Shown here piece after piece: positions 50-56,829 of a stretch of 64,000 nt of DNA. The DNA is taken from NCBI RefSeq assembly GCF_020906515.1, contig NC_085854.1, forward strand, positions 186,001 to 250,000. Direction: 5' to 3'. Numbering within the stretch: the first letter of the stretch is position 1; each line of letters starts with the position of its first letter. The notes under the pieces were generated by a model. It searched no databases. It was not told where the DNA came from and saw only the letters and a list, made by a program, of their open reading frames with translations. The position numbers and the translations under genes were made by a program. This stretch comes from Vanrija pseudolonga (Eukaryota > Basidiomycota > Tremellomycetes > Trichosporonales > Trichosporonaceae).

Positions 50-215
50 CCCTCGCAGTGCACTGTACCGCGAACAACAGAAATGCAGATGTGTGCTTGG
101 CATGCAACGGGTAGCGCTTGGTCACGGGGGGCTGACGGCTCGCCCCCCACGTCTACACATATAGGGGTACAAATGACCCACCCCCTCCCCCCTTCTGCTG
201 TGTCCAACAGTGACT
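50..215 (+). repeat. Duplicated promoter-side block, copy 1
   Basis: Diverged copy of the sequence at 1442-1615. Shared landmarks in the same order are TGTGTGCTT, AGCGCTT, ACGGCTCG, CACGTCTAC and CTTCTGCT. The copy lies far upstream of gene 1, whereas the second copy ends about 30 bp before gene 2, so gene 1 may have a longer leader or a lost first exon. The alignment was judged by eye. Confidence 0.5.
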
Positions 216-501
216 CAGTCAACCACCCCTCCAGTTCAAACCCCCAACAGGTCGCTCTCAAATGTATGCAGGTCTGTTGATGTACCCACCGAACGACACC
301 CCTCGGTGTTGACCGCAACACTGCTTTGTGTTGATGTGCCAAACATCTGACTCGGGCCTCCTCCCAGGCCCTGTGAGCCCCTGGATCCTCAATGCCATCA
401 CTCATGGGGACATTCAGTGCCGGTGTAAACATCGTGGCACTTGGACTGCTGGTCCGGCCTGCGATCCATCAGCTGGCAGCCAAACACGACATCCTGCAAT
501 C

Positions 502-612: not shown

Positions 613-1214
613 ATGGACAACCCCCACGGCACACTTCCTGCTCCTGTTTCCATTGTGAAGCGCCGCGGTTCGGTATGTCCCAAGGCTCTGGCCACCAGCT
701 AACGACCGCGTCTTTGCAGCTCACGTACCGCGTTGAGACCATGTTCTACACCAACCGTCAGTTCAGGGACGTCGAGGCCTGCGTCAATGACTTCTTCATT
801 CAGCAAGGGGGTGAGTGATATTCAACAGCCTCATTTGCTTACTTTATCGCAGTGTACAATAAGATCAAGTGTGTCCCGCTTGAAAACAAGAACGGTGGCC
901 CCATGGGATTCCAAATCGATGTCGCCATAGACGAAGAGGAGGTTACCCAGAAGGTTGAGCAACGTCTCCAGAATATGGGCGAGGACCTGAAGAAGGCTAT
1001 CGATACCAAGTATGTAGGTAAACCAGGAAGACGCTAACGATCCCGAAGGCTCGCGGAGCAATACACCCCCACGAAGAAGGTTCAGAAGAGGGACAAGCCC
1101 AGCCCAAACAAGAACCGCGTCCCTCCGCTCAGCTTCCTTGGTGCCACCATCGGGAAGAACCTGAGATGCCGAAGGTCAAGAAGGCCAAGAAGACGAAGGC
1201 CAAGCTCTAGCTGA
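613..1214 (+). CDS. Array-1 paralog 1, hypothetical protein
   Basis: Unrecognised protein of about 157 residues from four exons: 613-672, 720-810, 853-1009 and 1049-1214. Intron phases are 0, 1, 2, the signature of all members of this array. Exon 2 encodes a module starting LTYRVETMFYTN and exon 3 carries the family P-x-G-[FKR] core (GGPMGFQIDV). The start is the first ATG of the frame that splices cleanly. The last acceptor is AAG rather than CAG. The tail is odd: the spliced frame ends in an Arg/Ser-rich stretch, while a shifted frame reads a Lys-rich tail (PKVKKAKKTKAKL) to a TAG at 1208-1210. A recent frameshift, or a sequence error, near the 3' end is therefore possible. No signal peptide or membrane segment is visible. 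Function unknown. Confidence 0.5.
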
Positions 1215-1646
1215 GCCTGAGCCGGGTCCTGGTTCTGGGGGTTGCCCCATTTCCCATCAATGTATGTAGATGCCCTCGTGCGTCGCCCGTTTCCTTTTGT
1301 AGATAGGCTTATGCATATCTTTCTAATTATTGGTTGTCGAGCTATACCCTTGAGTGGTGGGGTGGGGTAAGTTAAACGCGGCTAGGTGATGATGTATGAA
1401 CAGAAGATCGGCAGTCACGTTGGGAAAACAAACCAAAGTGCCCTCGCATCTCACAGTAACACAACACACACAATAGCAATGCAGCTGTGTGCTTCGAATC
1501 CCACGGGCAGCGCTTTGCACATAGGGACACGGCTCGTTCGCACGTCTACCCGGCGGGGGGCATAGAGAGCGGACTCGCTCACCCACTTCTGCTCCGTCCC
1601 ACCACTTTCTCACTCAGCACCCTGAACACCACAGCCAGTCGTCCTC
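1215..1646. other. Spacer between array-1 paralogs 1 and 2
   Basis: Holds the 3' flank of paralog 1 and the promoter of paralog 2, including the duplicated block at 1442-1615. Nothing else supported. Confidence 0.5.
1442..1615 (+). repeat. Duplicated promoter-side block, copy 2
   Basis: Counterpart of 50-215, ending about 30 bp before the ATG of paralog 2. It supports a tandem-duplication origin that included promoter sequence. The region upstream of paralog 3 (about 2860-2960) shares shorter pieces such as GACTCGCTC.CCCAC. Confidence 0.5.
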
Positions 1647-2523
1647 ATGTCCTCCATCTCCAGCCAAGCTGAGGACGGCTCTTCGCCTTCCACGATGAGT
1701 GAAGTTGAGGCGCCTTCCACGATGGGTGAAGTCGAGGACCAATACATACCTTTCAACTTCATTCCACCCGAAGCCGGCTACACCGCTTCCATCATGAGTC
1801 AATCTGACGACGGCTACCCGCCGTCGACGATGAGTCTGGAAGGTCGCTCCACGCCATCCATGACGAACCGATACCAGGACAGCTTCGGACCGTCCTCGAG
1901 TAGTCAAGATGGAGACCGCTCCGCGACGCCCTCAACAACGAGTAATGCCGAAGACCCCTTCGCGCCTGCCGCGACGCCTCAATGGGAAAACCAGTTCATG
2001 CCTCGAGACTACCACCTGCCGCTCTTGACCGACAACCACGTTCTCGTACGTCCACCGTCACCTGAGGACCCCACCTAACGTCGCCGCAGTACCTCTTCAC
2101 CACACGGACCAACTACCAGCTCACCCGCCCCGAGACGCACGCGGTCAAGAACCAGGTGGAGGAGGAGCTACATACGGCTGATCGTAAGTGTGGAACCGAC
2201 ACAAAGCTAACCGCGTCCTCGCAGTTCACAAGTTTTCATTCATTTGGCTCTCAAAGTCGTTTGACGCCGGTCCGCACGGCTTCCTCCTCCAGTTCTCCAT
2301 CATGGACATGCTGGAGCTCCCCCAGGAGGTGATTGTCAACATTGGCTGCTGCCTTGTGGTGAATGCGCATACGGAGTGAGTTGAGCCCCCTACCGCACCA
2401 CCACGCTAACCACAACCCAGCGTCGACGCGATCCGTTACTATCCCCGTGCGGTCAACGACCCGAAGGAGGTCGAGGTCGCGCCGCCTGGATACCGCAAAT
2501 ACACCTTTCGCCACATCCCATAG
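1647..2523 (+). CDS. Array-1 paralog 2, Ser/Thr-rich N-terminal extension
   Basis: Predicted 248-residue protein from exons 1647-2045, 2090-2183, 2225-2375 and 2421-2523, with the array's 0-1-2 intron phases and a 94-nt exon 2. Exon 1 is far longer than in its neighbours. It encodes about 133 low-complexity residues with a degenerate PSTMS repeat (SPSTMSEVEA, APSTMGEVED, PPSTMSLEG), probably disordered. The family core follows: YLFTTRTNYQLTR in exon 2, AGPHGFLLQF in exon 3, then DVDAIRYYP in exon 4. No targeting signal is evident. Function unknown. The array assignment is well supported by splice phases and the P-x-G-F motif. Confidence 0.65.
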
Positions 2524-3084
2524 AACCACATGAAGTTTATCCCAGCCCATGAAGCGTGTTAGTGCGCATGAAAGACGATGTCAGTGGCGGGTGGGGCGAC
2601 GGTCACACGGCATGACCAGAGTGTGTCAACCTAAGAAGCACTTGGGGGAGTCGAGCCTGTCACTGATCTGCTGGGGCCTTGGGCACATTCTTCAAACTCA
2701 ATATTGTCTTGATGCGAGACAAAAGCGCGGTGGAACAAATCACACCCAGGTCCTGATCGCCATCGAGGTGATAAAAGCCACTCGCACCCGGGACCGTCGC
2801 CCTCGGCACGTGGCATTGTCCACCAGGCGTGGCGGGCTCGGGGGTCGGGTTTGCCGCACACCGTGCTCCGTGTGTGCGTGGGGGTGTGGTGTGTGCTGGG
2901 TTCTGGTGCGACATGCATGGGGCCTGACTCGCTCGCCCACGCGCAAGCACACTCAACCCCTCTCGCGTCCGCGCACCGCCGACACACCCATCCTTTCCAC
3001 ACCGTCGTCACACACCAACACTTAACATTGTCATTGTCACTCTCACTCTTCTTACACCACACATCCTCTTGGTCCACGTCCAAC
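2524..3084. other. Spacer between array-1 paralogs 2 and 3
   Basis: Promoter region of paralog 3, ending in a CT-rich tract (about 3027-3060) typical of fungal leaders. Open frames here lack splice or codon support. Confidence 0.5.
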
Positions 3085-3671
3085 ATGGCTATCATCACCG
3101 GTCCCAACCACCCTGTTAACTGCTCCGCCCCGGTGGAGTCTGGCTCGGCCAGCACGCACTTCGTACGTTCACTCCTCGCGTTGTCTCTGAACGCACAATG
3201 CTGACGAGCAGGTTACCGTCATGTCTGACTGCGAGTCGCCGTGGATGGAGGGGTTCACCGACCACCTCGAGGATTTCATCCACAGGACTCTCGACGACGA
3301 TAACAGTAGGTTACTGGGCGAGGCTTTGTACACAACGCTAACACTGCCAAGTCACCAAGGACGAGTTCAAGCTCGAGTGGGAGACCACTGGCGACCACCC
3401 CAAGGGCTTCACTCTTCGCTTCGACCAGTACATCATTAGCGCCGAGGCCTTCTGCAGGATCAGCAACTTCATGATCATCTATCTTGAGGCCCCGTGAGTG
3501 GGCGAGGAGCGCCGCGCGCGTAGCACGTTGCTAATACCACACAGGGTCGTGGTCACCATGTCGCCGGGCCTCCCCCTCCGTCGCACTATGCGCTTCCACA
3601 TGGACTGCGCTACCGACACCAACCGCCTTGTCATTTGGCAGACCTGCGCCCGTTTTCCCTGCATGCTCTAA
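3085..3671 (+). CDS. Array-1 paralog 3, hypothetical protein
   Basis: Predicted 146-residue protein from exons 3085-3162, 3212-3305, 3352-3493 and 3545-3671, phases 0-1-2, exon 2 of 94 nt. Exon 2 encodes VTVMSDCESPWMEGF and a helical-looking segment. Exon 3 has the family core DHPKGFTLRF, and exon 4 opens with PVVVTMSP, matching the beta-strand-like start of exon 4 in paralogs 4 and 5. The ATG has a good context (CCAACATGG) and begins the only frame that splices through all four exons. No signal peptide. I do not recognise the family. Confidence 0.7.
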
Positions 3672-3973
3672 GAGAACAGCTGGAAGAGCGGACTTCTTGT
3701 AGCTGTGCTCTTGAAAGCTTGCTGTCGTAGACACGTAGACAATCTGTATGCCCCGCTCCATGCAGCTTGTCGCCAGTGTGGACCCGAGCAAAATTGCACT
3801 TGACGCCAAAGGATGTGTTGTCGAGGTTCAGACTCGCCATCGTCGACTCGCGGATGACCATCAATCTGGCGTCGTCCCACTGCGCCGCCTCATAAGAACC
3901 TGCTTCGCGCATCCTATAACACCCAGCCTGTTTCACGCTCCTTCTCCTCTCAACCCCACTTGCGCCAGCCAAC
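3672..3973. other. Spacer between array-1 paralogs 3 and 4
   Basis: Contains a TATAAC element at about 3915, some 58 bp before the next ATG. Nothing else supported. Confidence 0.5.
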
Positions 3974-4414
3974 ATGTGCCCCACCAACGGCAAGCCCGAG
4001 GTACGTCGCCACCCCACTGTCAGCAGTAACAGCACTCACCGCGGCAGATCATCGTTGAGAGCAACGTCCGCGACTGCGACAAGCTCGGCGTCATCGCCAT
4101 CTGTCGCTTCACCTACCGCATCCTGTCGACCAAGATGGAGCGTCACCTCGACGGCGCGTGCCAGAACGGCTCCTCGTCGTCGGGCAAGTGTGCCCAGTTC
4201 TACTTCAAGGCCAACCCCACCTACCACGAGACGCTCGGCACCCTCCACATCAACATCGTGTGCAGCCAGCCTCTCACCGCGTCCGAGGTCCACTGGATCC
4301 GCTGGACGGCCGACAAGTGGTGCAACACGCCGTGGGTACTCGGTCGCAGGCGCGCTGACCAGCAGCGTCAAGATTTACACGTACCCCGAGATCCCCAAGG
4401 AGCAGTACACCTAG
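3974..4414 (+). CDS. Array-1 paralog 4, lacks the second family intron
   Basis: Predicted protein of about 120 residues from exons 3974-4000, 4048-4331 and 4363-4414. The first intron is phase 0 and the last phase 2, as in the rest of the array, but the phase-1 intron is absent, so exons 2 and 3 are fused. The last intron is only 31 or 34 nt because the acceptor is a tandem CAGCAG; either choice keeps frame and changes one residue. The core is recognisable as TLGTLHINIV, followed by VKIYTYPEIPK, which matches VKVKTWP in paralog 5. Four cysteines are present, none in a known pattern. Function unknown. Confidence 0.6.
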   Translation: MCPTNGKPEVRRHPTVSSNSTHRGRSSLRATSATATSSASSPSVASPTASCRPRWSVTSTARARTAPRRRASVPSSTSRPTPPTTRRSAPSTSTSCAASLSPRPRSTGSAGRPTSGATRRGYSVAGALTSSVKIYTYPEIPKEQYT

Positions 4415-4814
4415 GCGCGCGTCGAGTGCACAAAACAAAGAAAAGGTCGCTGAAGAGAGGGGGTGCATTTTGTGTAGGAACCATGCATGGGTTGTAAGGC
4501 GACGACGTTGGAGGCGACTGGCTCGGTGCAGCTGGTGGTGGCGGGGATTGACCCACCCCCCACGCTCATGACCGTACGGTGGTGTGTGCTCATGGTGGGG
4601 GATAGCTCTTGGGCAGTTTTACTCGGCGGCGGCGGCAAAACTGATCTGGCATAGGTGGTACGGTGGCAAGCGTTGAGTGACGAGCGCACCAGCCGTGTTG
4701 TTGTGTGGCCGCCGTCGCGCCAGATGATGACGCCGCCACGCGCCGGCGCGAGAGAGCCAGTGTGCGCACCTCGAGTCACCCATCATTGTTCACTCGTCAC
4801 CCAACACCCTCACA
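4415..4814. other. Spacer between array-1 paralogs 4 and 5
   Basis: No gene seen. It contains the 3' flank of paralog 4 and the promoter of paralog 5. Confidence 0.5.
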
Positions 4815-6067
4815 ATGGCCCAAAAGGTGGAATTCGGCGGCAAGGTGAGTTCTATCTGTACAAGAACGACAGCTGACCCCAGGCCGAGTTCTGGATCGAC
4901 CGTGACTTGAGCACGTTTGAGCAGTCGTTCTTCCGCACTTTCCTCATCAACTTCTTCATTTCGCGCAAGAGTGAGCTTGGTGCGTAATTGCTGCTGACGG
5001 CAGTCACGTATGAGGCCCGCTACTTGTTTGAGCCTTCGGCGGAGGAGAGTGAGAAGGGTGAGGAGAGCGGCACGAGCGACAGCGACCACAGCAGTGCGGC
5101 GAGTGAGGAGAATGAAGGCACCAACGGCAGCCAGGCCACCGAGCGCAATGCCGCATCCAGTGCGGGGACCGAAGGCAGCGAGGCGACCGAGGACGTCGAG
5201 GCGATCGCAAGAAGCGAGGTCACCGAGGCCAGCGACGAGAGCGCAAGTAGCGAGGAGACCGGCCCGCCCAAGCAGCCATGCGGCTTCGGCATCTCCACCC
5301 TCCATCTCCTCACCCCACCGCACATCCAGCTCATCGCCAGCAAGCTCTCCCTCCTGGCGAAGTGCAGGTACGTTGTTTGTCAAGACAGCGCTGACACCCC
5401 CAGCGTCAAGGTCAAGACGTGGCCACGGCACCCGCCCCCGCCGGTGGGGTGGGACCGGCTGTCGGACGGCGAGGTCGACGAGGACGACCTGTCGGCCAAG
5501 CATCGTTGGTGGGTCGACTCCGACAGCGACTCCGACAGCTACGCTTCCGACCAGCAGCCAGACAGCACAACCGACACCCCCGAGACAACGCCGCTCACCA
5601 CCCCCGCCGACGAGGAGCCACGCTCCGACTGGCAGGGCTGTGATACTGACCCGCGCGACAGGCAAAACTGGCAGTCGCGCTGGGTGGAGGACACGCCGTG
5701 CGAGACGGACATTGACCGCCCGCAGCCCTTGGGGCCGGTCTACCTCGCGACGATTCCGGGGGCCGCCGAGGCGTGGCAGGACGACATGGTCGCCGACTGG
5801 GTGGCCCGCGGTGCAGAGGACAGGAAGAACGCGCGCTGGAGGAGCGTGTACAAGCTTGCTGCTACACACGCCGCTACCTACGTCTTGGGAGCGCAAGCAG
5901 TCCGCGAACACACAGTCCGTCAACGACGCATGAGTTGGTGGGATGGATACGTCTCGCCGCTCCTGTACAATACCACGGCTATCGTCGTTGTGCGCTACCG
6001 CGCGCCGTCGCCCGTTGGGTGGGTCAACGTGATGGACCATCGCCTGCGGCGTGCTTTCAACTTTTAG
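4815..6067 (+). CDS. Array-1 paralog 5, with acidic insertion and long C-terminus
   Basis: Largest array member, 381 residues, from exons 4815-4844, 4883-4970, 5004-5367 and 5404-6067. Phases are 0-1-2. The family core is split by an insertion of about 80 residues rich in Glu, Ser, Thr and Ala (for example SEATEDVEAIARSEV), after which it resumes with QPCGFGISTLHLL. Exon 4 starts SVKVKTWPRH as in paralog 4 but continues for about 220 residues with Asp/Ser repeats (DSDSDSDSYASD) and a basic C-terminus. The start ATG follows CCCTCACA and gives the first coding exon MAQKVEFGGK. No membrane or secretion signal is evident. Function unknown. Confidence 0.65.
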
Positions 6068-6505
6068 CCGCGGTGTGTGGACCTGGAGTGCGTGGAGTGC
6101 GTGGGGCAAGACGACGGCGGCGAGCGCACCCGCCACGATCGCCGCACCGCACCCCCCGCACCACCAACAATTAACAAAAATGCGCCATAGCGCACAGTGC
6201 ATGCATGTATGCCCTATCGTTCAGTATGTGCGTTAGAATGGCCTATGAAAATGCATGCATAGTGGTAGAACGGATGGATGACTGCCTCAGCGTGCTCGCC
6301 CACACACACCATGGCTCGAGCGTGTGTGCCGGTTGGCACCGTCTTCTCGTCTGCCCTGCGCAGCGCCGGTGTCAGAATACCACGGCGGGCTGGCCAGTCA
6401 AAGAGGGGATCCGGGTGGCCATAAAGCCTGCACGTCTTCCCCAAACACTCGACATTCAATCCCTCTCTTCTCCTCCAACCCACCACCCACCACACACCAA
6501 GCACA
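6068..6505. other. Spacer between array-1 paralogs 5 and 6
   Basis: Contains a CATAAAG element at about 6420, roughly 85 bp before the next ATG, and a run of ATGCATG-type repeats near 6200-6260. No gene seen. Confidence 0.5.
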
Positions 6506-7022
6506 ATGGCGTCCGGCTTCCCACCGCGCGAGCCGACCCTCCCCAGCCCCAACCTCTCGAGCAGCGTCATGCTCCCGCACCTCTCCAACGTCGACATCGT
6601 GGTATGCTCACCCTCTGTGTCCAAGCTCACGCCAGTACGAGTTCTCGCAGAAGGCGAGCATGCCGTACGACGCGCCGCACTACACGCGCCTCCACATCCG
6701 CCTCCACGACCTGTGCTGTCGTTGGCCCGGTGGGTTCTTCTTGCCTACGCACAATACGCACCGCTGACGCACCCTCAGAGGTCGAAAGCTGCTCCGTCGA
6801 CCGCGCCCCCGCCCCCGGCAAGATCAAGATCACCATGAAGCCCGGCTTCGCGCTGGAGACGGTCTGGCTGCGCTACATCGCCGACTACGTGCGCTACGTC
6901 ACGTGGCACTTGTGGGTGCGTAAGTGGGAGCATGGCTGACGTTTAGGCCCGAGGCCTTCATCTACGCCGATGGGGAGGTCGTCACCAACTATGCTAAGAT
7001 GATTGGCGATGAGTGGGAGTAG
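6506..7022 (+). CDS. Array-1 paralog 6, hypothetical protein
   Basis: Predicted 132-residue protein from exons 6506-6601, 6636-6729, 6779-6911 and 6947-7022. Exon 2 is 94 nt and exon 3 is 133 nt, exactly as in paralogs 7 and 8, with phases 0-1-2. The module reads YEFSQKASMPYD (exon 2), RAPAPGKIKITM (exon 3) and AFIYADGEVV (exon 4), which lines up with paralog 8 (RPPAPGRVLFVM, VRVVEDGVVINGR). Paralogs 6-8 are clearly the closest subgroup of the array. No signal peptide; function unknown. Confidence 0.7.
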
Positions 7023-7245
7023 GTGGGGAGTATGTAGGGGTGCTGCTGCAGGCGGGAAGTAGTAAAACGAGCCATGCATAGTCATACCTCTCATACTGTG
7101 GAGCACCCGATCGAGTGGTGTGTCGCCTACAGTGGGTGAGCGGTCAAACAGCGGTGTACATCAGTCTGTGCGACCAAACGAGCACCAAACACCAGTGTTC
7201 ACACTTGACTCAACTGCACCACCACCACCCACCCACCCCAACACA

Positions 7246-7861
7246 ATGCAAGCCGACCAGACGAGCTACCCAGCCCCGCCCCGCCCCCCACCGCTGTACG
7301 CCATATCCGGCCGCAGCGTCGCGACCTCGCGCATTGTGAGTCACCACCCCGCCGACGCCGCTGACAACAGCACGAGTTCGTCATGGCGCGCGACGAGGCG
7401 TTTAGTCTGGGCGAGTACCTCGTCATCAAGCAAGAGCTGGGCGACGCGCTCTCGCGCGTGGGGGGTGGGTTTGGCTCGTTACCCATCTCTGAGCCTGCTG
7501 ACGCACGCAGGCATCGCCTCCTTCACCGTCGCCCGTCCGCCAGCCGTCGGACGCGTCCTCGTCACCATGGTCCCAGGCAACTCCCTCCGCACGCGCGGCA
7601 AGACGTTCGTCGCGCAAACAATCCAGTGGGCGACCGAGCTCCCGTAGGTGTCCCCGCGCGACGCGAGCTGACGCCCCCAGCGTGCGGGTCAAGCGCCACG
7701 ACAACCGGTTCATCGTCGACGGCGTGGTCGTCACCGCTGAGGGATGGCGCGTTAATGGGGCTGAGGAGAAGCCGCGGACTAGTGGGGCGAACTGGGGTGT
7801 CGTGGCCGGGGCGGGTCGCTCGGCTCAGGCGGCACAAAGTGGTAGCGGTGGTGCTCGTTAG
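7246..7861 (+). CDS. Array-1 paralog 7, hypothetical protein
   Basis: Predicted 165-residue protein from exons 7246-7335, 7371-7464, 7511-7643 and 7681-7861. Exon lengths of 94 and 133 nt and phases 0-1-2 match paralogs 6 and 8. Motifs: HEFVMARDEAFSLGEY (exon 2), RPPAVGRVLVTM (exon 3), RFIVDGVVV (exon 4), then a Gly/Ala/Ser-rich tail. The N-terminal exon is Pro-rich. The ATG lies in ACACAATGCAA and opens the only spliceable frame. Unknown function; probably intracellular since no signal peptide is visible. Confidence 0.7.
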
Positions 7862-8157
7862 TGTCTGGTTAGGTTTACACGATGCCACACTCGTCGTCGT
7901 GCATCAGCAAGTGGCCTCGTATCCCTTCACGTCGACCAAGAGACTGACTGGCTTGTAGCCTGGCACATGAGCAAGCTGTCACTTGTGTTTGCGCCGTGAC
8001 TCGACTCACCCACCAGCGCGGGACGAAGCGGTGATGGTGTGTGTGGGTGGGTGGGTGGGTGCGAGCGAGCGACCCAGCCAGCCAGCCACGTCGTCGCACA
8101 ACACCCCATCCCCCTTCCACTTTCTCTTCTCCTCCCACGACGACCAACCCACCAACA

Positions 8158-8676
8158 ATGCCGCTCATAGTAAGCACCCCCACCCCACCCCACCAACACC
8201 CGGCCACTAACACACGTAGTACGAGCTCTTTCACCCCAACAGGCAGGCGTACACCGTCGAGCAGTGGCACGACCTGCGCGTGCGCCTCTTCCACCTGCTC
8301 GGGGAGGACACGAGTGCGTCGTCCGTTTCCGCCAGTGTCACACTGACCCCAGCAGCTGTGCGCGAGTACGTCCTCTCGCGCCCTCCCGCGCCGGGCCGCG
8401 TCCTCTTCGTCATGGAGGACCGCTTCACGCTGAGTCGTGAACAGCTCGGCCGTCTCCGCGGCTGCCTCTTCTGGGTCGTCGCTGTGCCGTAGGTCAAAGG
8501 TGGATGAGTGACTGTGCTGACGCCCCAGCCACCACGTCCGCGTCGTGGAGGACGGCGTCGTTATCAATGGCCGCGCGGTGCCGCGCGAGCTTGTTGGCGA
8601 GGAGGGGAGCGACGACGGGAGCTCCTGGGCCCACATGCCTGAGGAGTACGAGGAGGAGGGCGTGCTCCCTACTTAG
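8158..8676 (+). CDS. Array-1 paralog 8, minimal hypothetical protein
   Basis: Predicted 128-residue protein from exons 8158-8169, 8220-8313, 8356-8488 and 8529-8676. The first coding exon is only four codons (MPLI). Exon 2 is 94 nt and exon 3 is 133 nt, as in paralogs 6 and 7. Motifs: YELFHPNRQAYTVEQW, RPPAPGRVLFVM, and VRVVEDGVVINGRAV. The acceptor of exon 3 is a CAGCAG pair, giving one optional residue. The protein is close to the minimal core, so it is the best member for structure prediction. Function unknown. It is the last array gene; a transporter on the opposite strand follows. Confidence 0.7.
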
Positions 8677-41759: not shown

Positions 41760-44672
41760 ATGAGCTTCGACCCGCACGCCGAGCCCCTCGTCCGCCCCGC
41801 CATCAGCGCAGACGACGCGGTGCGCGTCGCGCGCGAGCGGTACGGCATCGCTGGCAGCGTCAGCGAGCTCGGCTCGAACCAGGACCGCAACTTCCTCCTC
41901 ACACCAGCGAAGAGGGACCATAACGTGCAGCGCTACCTCCTCAAGTTTGACAACGCGGCATACCTGACGCAAGAGATCCAGACGCAGAACGACGCGCTGC
42001 TGCGCTTGTCTGCGGCCGGGCTGACTGTCCCCGCGCCAGTGAAGTCTCCGGCAGGCAACACCATCGAACATGCCCTCGTTGGGGGGAAGGACGTGCGCGT
42101 CCGCCTGCTCACGTTCGTCGAGGGCGAAAGCATGGTCAAGGACGGCGTGCTCGCCCCGTGCGTGATCGCGCAGCTCGGCGCGCTGGCCGGCCGCGTCGTC
42201 TCCGTGCTCGCCACCTTTCCGTCGACAGGCCTCGACCGAAGCCTGCAATGGGACCTGCGCAACGCCGTGCCCGTGGTAGAGGGGTACATCGATTCCGTGG
42301 CCGCTGACCGGCGGGGCCAAGTACTCGCCGCGACCAAGATCGCCTACGACCAAGTCTCTGCCGTTGCGTCCCGCCTGCCTATCCAGCCGATCCACGGCGA
42401 CATCACAGACGACAACGTCGTCGGCAGCCGCGACGCCTTCGGGCGCGTGCGCCCCACCGCCGTTATCGACTGGGGCGACATGGGCACGGGGTACCGCGTC
42501 GCCGAGATCGCCGTGGCCGTGAGCTCGGTGCTGCACCACCAAGGGGCGGGGCGCGCCTTCGACGCGCTGCCGGCCATCGCCGCGTTCGACGCCGCCGCCG
42601 GCACGCCGCTGTCCGACGCGGAGATCGACGCGCTCTGGCCGCTCGTCGTGTTGCGGGGTGCCGTGCTTGTCGTGAGCGGCGCGCAGCAGGTGGCCTTGGA
42701 GCCCGGGAACACGTACGCCAAGGAACGCATGGAGGCCGAGTGGCGCCTGTTCGAGATTGCCGCCGAGCTGGACACGCGCGTCGCGGCGGCCGGCATCCGC
42801 GCCGCGCTCGGCCGCGAGGCTAGCCCCCCGCCCAGTGTGGGCACGCTGCTCGACCGCGCGTCGACCGCGGTCCGGCTTGACACGGCCTCCCCGCTCCTCG
42901 CTGCAGGCGTGTGGCTGCGCGGCGAGGAGGCCGAGGCCGCGCTCGCGGAAAAAGTCTACACTGCGCGCTTTGCGTACGGCGAGCACCGGCTCACGCGGAC
43001 CATTGGGCCCGGGAAGGAGCGCCCGGTGAATGCTGCGCTGTTTACGGAGCTTACGCTCGCCGAGCCGGTGGCCCTCACTGCGCCGTTTGCGGCCGAGGTG
43101 GCCGCCACGGCGGACGGGTTCACGCTGGCGTCGCCGACGCACGGCACGCTGCGCCTGTTTGGCGACGTCGACTCGGCGCCCTCTGGCGCCGTGGCCGAGG
43201 GCGCGCCGCTCGGCCGCGCGACGGGCCGCCTCAAGGTCCAGTGGGCGCGTGCGCACGCGCCCCCGCCACCGCTCTTCACCGACGCCGACTCGCTCCCCGC
43301 GTGGAAGAGGCTCACGTACGACCCCGCCGCCTTAGTCGCCGCCCCGCCAGCCGACTGGCTCCCTGACGTTGCTGCTGAGCGGACGCGCCGCGAGGCGGCC
43401 GTCGCGGGCGCCGCGGAGCGATACTACGAGATCCCGCCCGACATCGAGCGCGGGTGGCGCGAGCTGCTCATCGACACCACGGGGCGCTGCTACCTCGACA
43501 TGGTGAACAACGTCGCTGGGATCGGGCACGGGCACCCGGCCATGGCGGCGGCGGTCAACCAGCAGCTGCTCACGCTCAACACGAACAGCCGCTTCCTGTA
43601 CGCCTCGCTCGCCGACTATGTCGAGCGGCTGCGCGCGCTCGCGCCTGACCCGTCGCTGTCGGTGGTCATGCTCGTCAACTCGGGCTCCGAGGCCGTCGAC
43701 CTCGCGCTCAAGCTCGCGCGCGCGCATACCGGCCGCCAGGACGTGCTCGCGCTCCGCGAGGCGTACCACGGCTGGACGGGCTTCACTGACGCCGTTTCGA
43801 CGTCGGCGTACGACAACCCGTACGCGGCCGCGAGCCGCCCCGCGTGGGTGCACGTCGCCGACGCGCCGAACACGTACCGCGGGGCACACCGCGATACCGA
43901 CTCGCGCGACCCCGGCGCCAAGTACGTCGCTGACGCGGTGCGCCTGCTCGACGACCTCGACGCGCAGGGCCGGCCCGTGGGCGCGTTCCTCGCCGAGCCA
44001 GTGTTCGGGAACGGCGGCGGCGTGCTCTTGCCCGACGGATACCTCGAGGGAGTGTACGCTGCCGTCCGCGCCCGCGGCGGCGTGTGTATCTCGGACGAAG
44101 TCCAAGTCGGGCTTGGCCGGCTCGGCCACTACACCTGGGGCGTGGAGCAGCAGCGCGTCGTGCCGGACATCATTGCCGTCGCCAAGGCGCTGGGGAACGG
44201 GTATCCCCTCGGCGCAGTATACACTACGCAGGCGATCGCAGACAGCTTGGTGCGCGAGGGCATGTTCTTCTCGTCAGCGGGCGGCGGGACGGCGAGCGCG
44301 GTCGCCGGGCTCGCCGTGCTCGACGTGATGCGCGACGAGGCGCTCCAGGCCAACGCGGCCGCGGTCGGCGACCTGCTGAGCGCGGGCTTTGCCGACCTCG
44401 CAAAGCGCCACAAGCTCATCGGCAAAGTCCACGGCATGGGCCTGTACCAGGGCGTCGAGCTCGTGCGCGACCGCGCGACGAAGCAGCCTGCGCCAGAAGA
44501 AACCGACTGGATCTGCGAGCGCCTGCTCGACTACGGCGTGATTATGCAGGCGACGAGCGAGCGGCGTAACGTGCTCAAGATCAAGCCCCCGCTCACGCTC
44601 ACCCCGGCCCATGCACGCGTGTTCCTCGACGCGCTGGACGCGGTGCTGGGCGAGCTGGAGGCGAGGGCATAG
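41760..44672 (+). CDS. APH-kinase/class-III aminotransferase fusion, intronless
   Basis: Single-exon gene for 970 residues with two enzyme domains. Residues about 1-340 are an aminoglycoside-phosphotransferase-fold kinase with HGDITDDN (about 212) and IDWGDMGTG (about 236), in the hydroxylysine-kinase branch. Residues about 380-540 form a linker domain with strands, in the place where bacterial fusions carry an M23-peptidase-like module. Residues about 545-970 are a PLP-dependent class-III aminotransferase with NSGSEAVDLALKLAR, EAYHGWTGFTDAVS, DEVQVGLGRLG and the Schiff-base Lys in AKALGNGYPLG (about 809). Vertebrate relatives act in sequence as a hydroxylysine kinase and a phospho-lyase, so a combined kinase/phospho-lyase for an amino alcohol or hydroxy-amino acid is the best guess. 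Lack of introns in an intron-dense window, and the bacterial-type fusion, suggest horizontal transfer. Confidence 0.85.
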   Translation: MSFDPHAEPLVRPAISADDAVRVARERYGIAGSVSELGSNQDRNFLLTPAKRDHNVQRYLLKFDNAAYLTQEIQTQNDALLRLSAAGLTVPAPVKSPAGNTIEHALVGGKDVRVRLLTFVEGESMVKDGVLAPCVIAQLGALAGRVVSVLATFPSTGLDRSLQWDLRNAVPVVEGYIDSVAADRRGQVLAATKIAYDQVSAVASRLPIQPIHGDITDDNVVGSRDAFGRVRPTAVIDWGDMGTGYRVAEIAVAVSSVLHHQGAGRAFDALPAIAAFDAAAGTPLSDAEIDALWPLVVLRGAVLVVSGAQQVALEPGNTYAKERMEAEWRLFEIAAELDTRVAAAGIRAALGREASPPPSVGTLLDRASTAVRLDTASPLLAAGVWLRGEEAEAALAEKVYTARFAYGEHRLTRTIGPGKERPVNAALFTELTLAEPVALTAPFAAEVAATADGFTLASPTHGTLRLFGDVDSAPSGAVAEGAPLGRATGRLKVQWARAHAPPPPLFTDADSLPAWKRLTYDPAALVAAPPADWLPDVAAERTRREAAVAGAAERYYEIPPDIERGWRELLIDTTGRCYLDMVNNVAGIGHGHPAMAAAVNQQLLTLNTNSRFLYASLADYVERLRALAPDPSLSVVMLVNSGSEAVDLALKLARAHTGRQDVLALREAYHGWTGFTDAVSTSAYDNPYAAASRPAWVHVADAPNTYRGAHRDTDSRDPGAKYVADAVRLLDDLDAQGRPVGAFLAEPVFGNGGGVLLPDGYLEGVYAAVRARGGVCISDEVQVGLGRLGHYTWGVEQQRVVPDIIAVAKALGNGYPLGAVYTTQAIADSLVREGMFFSSAGGGTASAVAGLAVLDVMRDEALQANAAAVGDLLSAGFADLAKRHKLIGKVHGMGLYQGVELVRDRATKQPAPEETDWICERLLDYGVIMQATSERRNVLKIKPPLTLTPAHARVFLDALDAVLGELEARA

Positions 44673-56545: not shown

Positions 56546-56829
56546 TCTGAGCGGAGATGTGTTGTTGTGGAGAAGGATGTGGAGAAGTCGAGTCGGAGTT
56601 GGAGATCCGCCCAGGTTAACTGACTGCGCGGGCTGCACGGGGCGGAGGGGCCACTCCGCTCGTCAACAACGGCCAACCCACTCTACAGCCATTCTTGCCA
56701 TCTGTCCACTCCGCACTCTCGGCGTGGGTGCATCGGCAGCCTCTCTGCCGACAGGAGCACCACGCAAAGCATGATATAGCCGCGGTGGGTGCGGGCCAGC
56801 CTGCGCCCCACCCCGCCGCCCACAGCACA

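What the first reader, a model, noticed from the sequence alone, without database searches (positions are those of the whole stretch)
613..8676. Eight-gene tandem array of highly diverged paralogs with one conserved splice architecture
Eight consecutive plus-strand genes show almost no simple identity. Yet seven of them have intron phases 0, 1, 2 in order (the eighth lost only the phase-1 intron), exon 2 is 94 nt in five of them, and exon 3 is exactly 133 nt in paralogs 6-8. A shared core P-x-G-[FKR]-x-hydrophobic (AGPHGFLLQF, DHPKGFTLRF, RPPAPGRVLFVM) sits at the same place in exon 3. Such conserved gene structure with runaway protein divergence suggests a fast-evolving family, for example recognition, conflict or mating-related. 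I know no described family with this pattern.
Basis: partly seen in the sequence, partly recalled or inferred. Interest (0 to 1): 0.87.

Follow-up and report, generated by a model that had tools for sequence, protein, structure and literature searches.

The report
Eighteen-gene orphan array in a yeast
A yeast carries a row of at least eighteen small neighbouring genes whose proteins look almost nothing alike but are cut by introns at the same places, so they appear to be one unnamed, much-diverged family, probably built on one common small protein fold and with unknown function.

Summary
The window is Vanrija pseudolonga. All eight models splice as described; three deposited proteins of these eight were retrieved, two (paralogs 3 and 8) identical to mine. 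The array continues upstream of the window: I model 18 genes on one strand over 21 kb, 16 of 18 with intron phases 0,1,2. A splice-architecture scan finds 11 in the array against 2 hits in 627 kb of other strand-sequence; the other 26 phase orders give 0 to 3 in the array. Sequence alone supports kinship in register for 9 of 18 once close relatives are removed; paralogs 4-8 are tied to the rest only by architecture, position and predicted element order. AlphaFold gives paralog 3 a beta-alpha-beta-beta-alpha-beta core at fair confidence, paralog 8 the same order at low confidence. No Pfam match above cut-off, no membrane span by hydropathy, no relative outside the species in three capped searches. 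'Runaway' selection is not shown: synonymous sites are saturated in the four pairs tested. The pattern itself is known from aphid bicycle genes. Function remains inferred.

The parts
613..1214 (+). paralog g1: exons 613-672, 720-810, 853-1009, 1049-1214; 157 aa
   Evidence: phmmer E 5e-9 to upstream member m10; with m10 left out 47 of 2000 shuffles score as high, out of register
1647..2523 (+). paralog g2: exons 1647-2045, 2090-2183, 2225-2375, 2421-2523; 248 aa, long low-complexity N-terminus
   Evidence: in register when its cluster is left out, 14 of 2000 shuffles as high
3085..3671 (+). paralog g3: exons 3085-3162, 3212-3305, 3352-3493, 3545-3671; 146 aa; = LOC62_06G007861
   Evidence: 5 of 2000 shuffles as high with its cluster left out; fold model
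3974..4414 (+). paralog g4: exons 3974-4000, 4048-4331, 4366-4414; 119 aa; phase-1 intron absent
   Evidence: membership rests on architecture and position (34 of 2000 shuffles as high, match out of register)
4815..6067 (+). paralog g5: exons 4815-4844, 4883-4970, 5004-5367, 5404-6067; 381 aa; acidic insert inside exon 3 and long exon 4
   Evidence: membership rests on architecture and a PCGF core (insert left out: 105 of 2000 shuffles as high)
6506..7022 (+). paralog g6: exons 6506-6601, 6636-6729, 6779-6911, 6947-7022; 132 aa
   Evidence: phmmer to g7 5e-8, to g8 4e-6
7246..7861 (+). paralog g7: exons 7246-7335, 7371-7464, 7511-7643, 7681-7861; 165 aa in my model, 144 aa in NCBI LOC62_06G007865 (other C-terminus)
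8158..8676 (+). paralog g8: exons 8158-8169, 8220-8313, 8356-8488, 8529-8676; 128 aa; = LOC62_06G007866; last member found
   Evidence: low-confidence fold model
379..490 (+). upstream DNA of g1, 77% identical over 112 alignment columns to upstream DNA of member m10 (window-relative -1076..-975)
74..156 (+). DNA upstream of g1, 76% identical over 83 columns to DNA upstream of g2 (1470-1549)
1470..1549 (+). DNA upstream of g2, the second copy of that repeat

Best explanation
This is one lineage-restricted family of small, apparently non-secreted proteins that has grown by tandem duplication into at least 18 neighbouring genes and diverged almost beyond sequence recognition. Each gene adds variable N- and C-terminal tails to one conserved module of about 95 residues, spread over exon 2, exon 3 and the start of exon 4; in the modelled member the introns fall at the edges of its secondary-structure elements. 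The module most likely folds as a beta-alpha-beta-beta-alpha-beta (ferredoxin-like) sandwich whose surfaces have diversified, so the likeliest mode of action is as a scaffold that binds a different partner in each paralog. Shown: that the gene models are open and spliceable, architecture, extent, kinship by sequence for half of the members. Predicted: the fold. Inferred only: that the proteins are binding modules and that the divergence reflects a recognition or conflict role.
For: 18 models, 16 with phases 0,1,2. Architecture scan 11 hits in the array, 2 elsewhere, other phase orders 0-3. phmmer clusters. Leave-one-out profile: 10 of 18 matched by at most 2 of 1000 shuffles; leave-cluster-out: 9 of 18 matched by at most 14 of 2000. 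Profile comparison of {m09,g2,g3} with {m05,m07,m04,m02} in register, E 9e-4 but HH probability only 22%. Fold model of g3: residues 21-110 in blocks of pLDDT 68-89, pTM 0.61, order E-H-E-E-H-E; g8 the same order. Structural neighbours are designed ferredoxin folds and varied natural ferredoxin-like proteins. GC at third positions 0.67-0.95 in all 18 models, as expected of coding exons here. No 19-residue window above Kyte-Doolittle 1.5 in any of 18.
Confidence: 0.5

Rival explanations
1. Slow relaxation, not an arms race: old tandem duplicates of a dispensable small domain that drift under weak constraint, keeping introns because intron positions change slowly.
For: Synonymous sites are saturated in the four pairs tested, so there is no sign that proteins change faster than neutral; the unresolved 5' end of m04 and 3' end of m09 may be decay; copies vary strongly in tails and inserts.
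Against: 16 of 18 models keep a three-intron open frame and all 18 keep third-position GC bias, so most still look like coding genes; no relative outside the species was found.
Confidence: 0.3
2. Meiotic-drive or killer family comparable to wtf genes: species-restricted, structure-conserved poison/antidote genes.
For: Restricted distribution and a conserved intron pattern resemble wtf (PMC9562144, passages seen).
Against: A Met within the first eight residues of exon 2 is present in only 4 of 17 models with a known exon 2 start (g1, g3, g7, m09), and there are no hydrophobic spans; no drive or transcript data.
Confidence: 0.08
3. Secreted effector family like bicycle genes.
For: Same evolutionary signature: conserved gene structure, hardly recognisable sequence (PMC9168663).
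Against: No signal-peptide-like N-terminus by hydropathy (9-residue maxima near the N-terminus at most 2.1, in g4; next 1.9 in m10). The passages I saw of PMC12820176 call Vanrija species saprotrophic, though they also discuss them as potential opportunists.
Confidence: 0.07
4. Two or three unrelated gene families that happen to share an intron pattern and sit side by side.
For: g6-g8 do not match the others by sequence.
Against: The 0,1,2 pattern with these exon sizes occurs twice in 627 kb of strand-sequence outside the array, so meeting it in two neighbouring families by chance is unlikely; same strand, spacing of 223-1108 bp, same predicted element order in the two members modelled.
Confidence: 0.1

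Closest known systems
bicycle genes of aphids (PMC9168663: abstract and one results section read; PMC13041983: abstract read)
   Same: Paralogs with very little sequence similarity, recognised by exon sizes and phases; structures show one fold under the divergence
   Different: Bicycle genes average about 17 exons, nearly all internal ones phase 2, have saposin-like folds and are implicated as plant effectors; here four exons, phases 0,1,2, a predicted ferredoxin-like core, no secretion signal seen, a yeast
wtf meiotic drivers of Schizosaccharomyces (PMC9562144: passages seen)
   Same: Fungal, restricted, rapidly changing family whose distant members share gene structure
   Different: [quoted passage not shown] no general start of that kind here
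ferredoxin-like superfolds: dimeric alpha-beta barrel, PII, acylphosphatase and similar proteins
   Same: Predicted order of strands and helices

Membership tests
one single paralog family (this array) | intron phases 0,1,2 with exon 2 of 82-103 nt and exon 3 of 121-162 nt on one strand | tested here: met
   11 of 18 by automatic scan; 16 of 18 show the phases in the final models, some completed by hand; g4 lacks one intron, m04 has no resolved first intron
one single paralog family (this array) | sequence kinship of every member to the rest | tested here: inconclusive
   9 of 18 supported with cluster left out; g1, g4, g5, g6, g7, g8, m01, m06, m08 not by this test, though g1 pairs with m10 and g6-g8 with each other
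one single paralog family (this array) | same fold | tested here: inconclusive
   g3 fair confidence, g8 low confidence, same element order; 2 of 18 modelled
bicycle genes | many small internal exons, nearly all phase 2 | tested here: not met
   four exons, phases 0,1,2
bicycle genes | saposin-like fold | tested here: not met
   the g3 model is alpha/beta; 1 of 18 with fair confidence
[quoted passage not shown]
   Met within the first eight residues of exon 2 in 4 of 17 models; transcripts not testable
named ferredoxin-like families with a Pfam profile (RRM, Dabb, PII, ACT and others) | match to the family profile | tested here: not met
   hmmscan of 18 proteins at E up to 1 lists only LRV and CpeT (g8, 0.17), TfoX_N (m05, 0.38) and CCDC106 (g5, 0.027), all below their cut-offs; the fold search itself is inconclusive
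a positively selected family | dN/dS above 1 | tested here: inconclusive
   NG86 core values above 1 within g6-g8, 0.5 to 1 in the other pairs listed; with a codon model and F3x4 frequencies g6-g7 gives 0.33 and three other pairs run to the bounds; third positions saturated in all four

The most novel reading that the evidence does not exclude
The array is a yeast recognition locus: a tandem set of non-secreted ferredoxin-like modules whose binding faces diversify under selection, differing in content between strains and deciding self/non-self or the outcome of a conflict with selfish elements, found only in Vanrija and detectable only by gene structure.
Probability: 0.15. Interest if true: 0.8.

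Novelty: new variant of a known kind. Interest (0 to 1): 0.5.

Why it matters
It is a compact fungal example of homology that survives in intron positions after protein sequences have diverged nearly beyond recognition. It suggests that part of the orphan genes in basidiomycete yeasts may be hidden families that a gene-structure search could recover, and gives a 21 kb locus on which that can be tested.

Tried and rejected
dN/dS: NG86 gave core values above 1 within g6-g8 and lower ones elsewhere. In a codon model g6-g7 gave 0.33 and g6-g8, g7-g8 and m05-m07 ran to the bounds, and third positions matched no better than codon-shuffled controls in all four, so I dropped it. A shared promoter motif: no k-mer stood far above the shuffled maximum; the best were C-rich or repeat-like words. 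A PDB sequence search with the profile listed 3 sequences, best threonyl-tRNA synthetase at E 0.03 over 50 positions; not pursued. Other paralogs in the genome: protein queries covering all 18 members found nothing else (three members again at E up to 10), but these queries also fail to find array members from each other, so absence elsewhere is not shown; only 324 kb of 24.9 Mb was scanned by architecture. Viral structure library: small alpha/beta proteins, best an Orpheovirus protein at E 8e-4 but 12 A rmsd. PHROGs: none for the 6 deposited proteins at E up to 0.01. An RNP1-like reading of the G-F core (RRM; motif recalled) was dropped: no RRM profile match. First six-protein alignment for folding was misaligned by long tails and not used.
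Full report
Origin. The window is positions 186001-250000 of contig 6 (2.6 Mb) in a 24.9 Mb genome. Paralog 8 equals protein LOC62_06G007866 of Vanrija pseudolonga, a basidiomycete yeast. Paralog 3 equals LOC62_06G007861.

Gene models. I rebuilt all eight genes with GT-AG introns of 33-51 nt. Six deposited proteins of the whole array were retrieved. Three of six equal my models (g8, g3, m07). Of the other three, m05 differs at both ends, g7 at the C-terminus, and m08 keeps my first intron in frame (12 extra residues). The deposited m05 ends in VRVYEEE and onward, which resembles the fourth strand of other members better than my own exon 4, so I take that one. There is no transcript evidence here.

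The array is larger. With exon ranges taken from the eight window genes, a scan of 124 kb found four more candidates directly upstream. A looser scan added m09, m10 and, with a wrong exon 2 that I corrected by hand, m02; m04, m06 and m08 were found by reading the sequence. These are m01 to m10, window-relative -12549 to -235. The total is 18 genes, all on the + strand, 223-1108 bp apart. Upstream of m01 only minus-strand frames that look like ordinary genes were seen, and downstream of g8 the scan found no convincing member. Weak points: no start or first intron could be resolved for m04, and the third intron and fourth exon of m09 are not convincing, although m09 is counted among the 16 of 18 with phases 0,1,2.

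Is it more than chance? In a uniform scan (exon 2 82-103 nt, exon 3 121-162 nt, score at least 19; ranges and threshold set after the array had been seen) the array gives 11 hits. Outside it there is one on the + strand at 56724 and one on the - strand at -16477, the latter in a gene that reads like a transcription factor. Four control stretches of 50 kb, the first of contigs 1, 2, 3 and 6, gave 0 on either strand. Running the other 26 phase orders over the same 124 kb gave 0 to 3 hits in the array. g5 (long exon 3), m02 (long exon 2) and g4 (intron lost) cannot be found by this scan, and m04, m06, m08 and m09 were not found by it.

Kinship by sequence. Plain phmmer among the 18 finds m10-g1 (5e-9), m09-g2 (2e-7), m09-g3 (7e-4), g6-g7 (5e-8), g6-g8 (4e-6) and g7-g8 (8e-7). 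Holding each member out of the profile, 10 of 18 score above all but at most 2 of 1000 shuffles. Leaving out the whole cluster as well, 9 of 18 stay above all but at most 14 of 2000, with the match in register (m02, m03, m04, m05, m07, m09, m10, g2, g3). The other nine do not: g4 34, g1 47, g6 55, g5 105, m01 174, m06 191, g8 320, m08 350, g7 1470 of 2000. Shuffles do not keep the strand-helix periodicity, so these numbers flatter the family somewhat. Profile comparisons (HH) are weak: {m09,g2,g3} against {m05,m07,m04,m02} in register at E 9e-4 but probability 22%, against {m10,g1} E 0.059, probability 0.9%, {m10,g1} against {m05,m07,m04,m02} E 0.026, probability 1.9%, and nothing in register for {g6,g7,g8}. 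For g4 to g8 the case therefore rests on architecture, position and, for g8, element order.

Distribution and evolution. None of the 18 proteins has a Pfam match above its cut-off (best listed E 0.027, a coiled-coil profile on the acidic g5). Three searches of 5.8 billion proteins returned only V. pseudolonga proteins, six in all. That tool needs shared five-residue words and draws at most 100 of them, and only the best 8000 candidates were scored, so diverged relatives could be missed; I could not check which other Vanrija proteomes it holds. The upstream DNA of m10 and g1 is 77% identical over 112 columns and that of g1 and g2 76% over 83, whereas no coding stretch passes the same search. 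Either the promoters are constrained or the coding parts change faster; this does not decide. dN/dS cannot decide either, since synonymous sites are saturated in the four pairs tested.

How it might work. None of the 18 models has a membrane-span-like stretch (19-residue hydropathy at most 1.49) or a convincing signal-peptide start by hydropathy. My reading is a small non-secreted module whose fold is kept and whose surface varies, most simply a binding scaffold with a different partner per paralog. Recognition or conflict is the attractive version, and relaxed drift the sober one.

What is known. The closest described pattern is the bicycle genes of aphids, found by a classifier on gene structure because sequences were too diverged (PMC9168663, abstract and one results section read), later shown to share a saposin-like fold (PMC13041983, abstract read). 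wtf drivers were extended to other fission yeasts partly by gene structure (PMC9562144, passages seen). The array is a member of neither: exon number, phases and, for bicycle, fold differ. Five literature searches listed no paper on this family. PMC12820176 (passages only) names the V. pseudolonga assembly.

Noticed in passing
41760-44672 (+): Single open frame in a stretch of about 72% GC joining an APH-type phosphotransferase domain to a class-III aminotransferase. The fusion and base composition are reminiscent (recalled) of bacterial genes; horizontal transfer is possible but was not tested.
   Followed up: partly
L013 3195-4523 (-), window-relative around -16477: Gene that reads by eye like a fungal transcription factor and by chance fits the same 0,1,2 splice scan; on the left side of the array.
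   Followed up: no
L012 4717-5490: Upstream member m06 has a long fourth exon with about 80 residues beyond the end of exon 3.
   Followed up: no
L012 846-1697: Upstream member m03 has a 284-residue first exon whose last part looks by eye like another beta-alpha unit; not tested.
   Followed up: no
deposited annotation of the array: Between LOC62_06G007858 (m08) and 007861 (g3) only two numbers remain for four of my genes (m09, m10, g1, g2), so the deposited annotation probably misses or merges some; inferred from numbers only.
   Followed up: no
G000:C2:1099533-1099781: Weak tblastn match (E 0.19, 35% identity over 82 residues) to the m05-m06 part of a strung query; could not be read.
   Followed up: no
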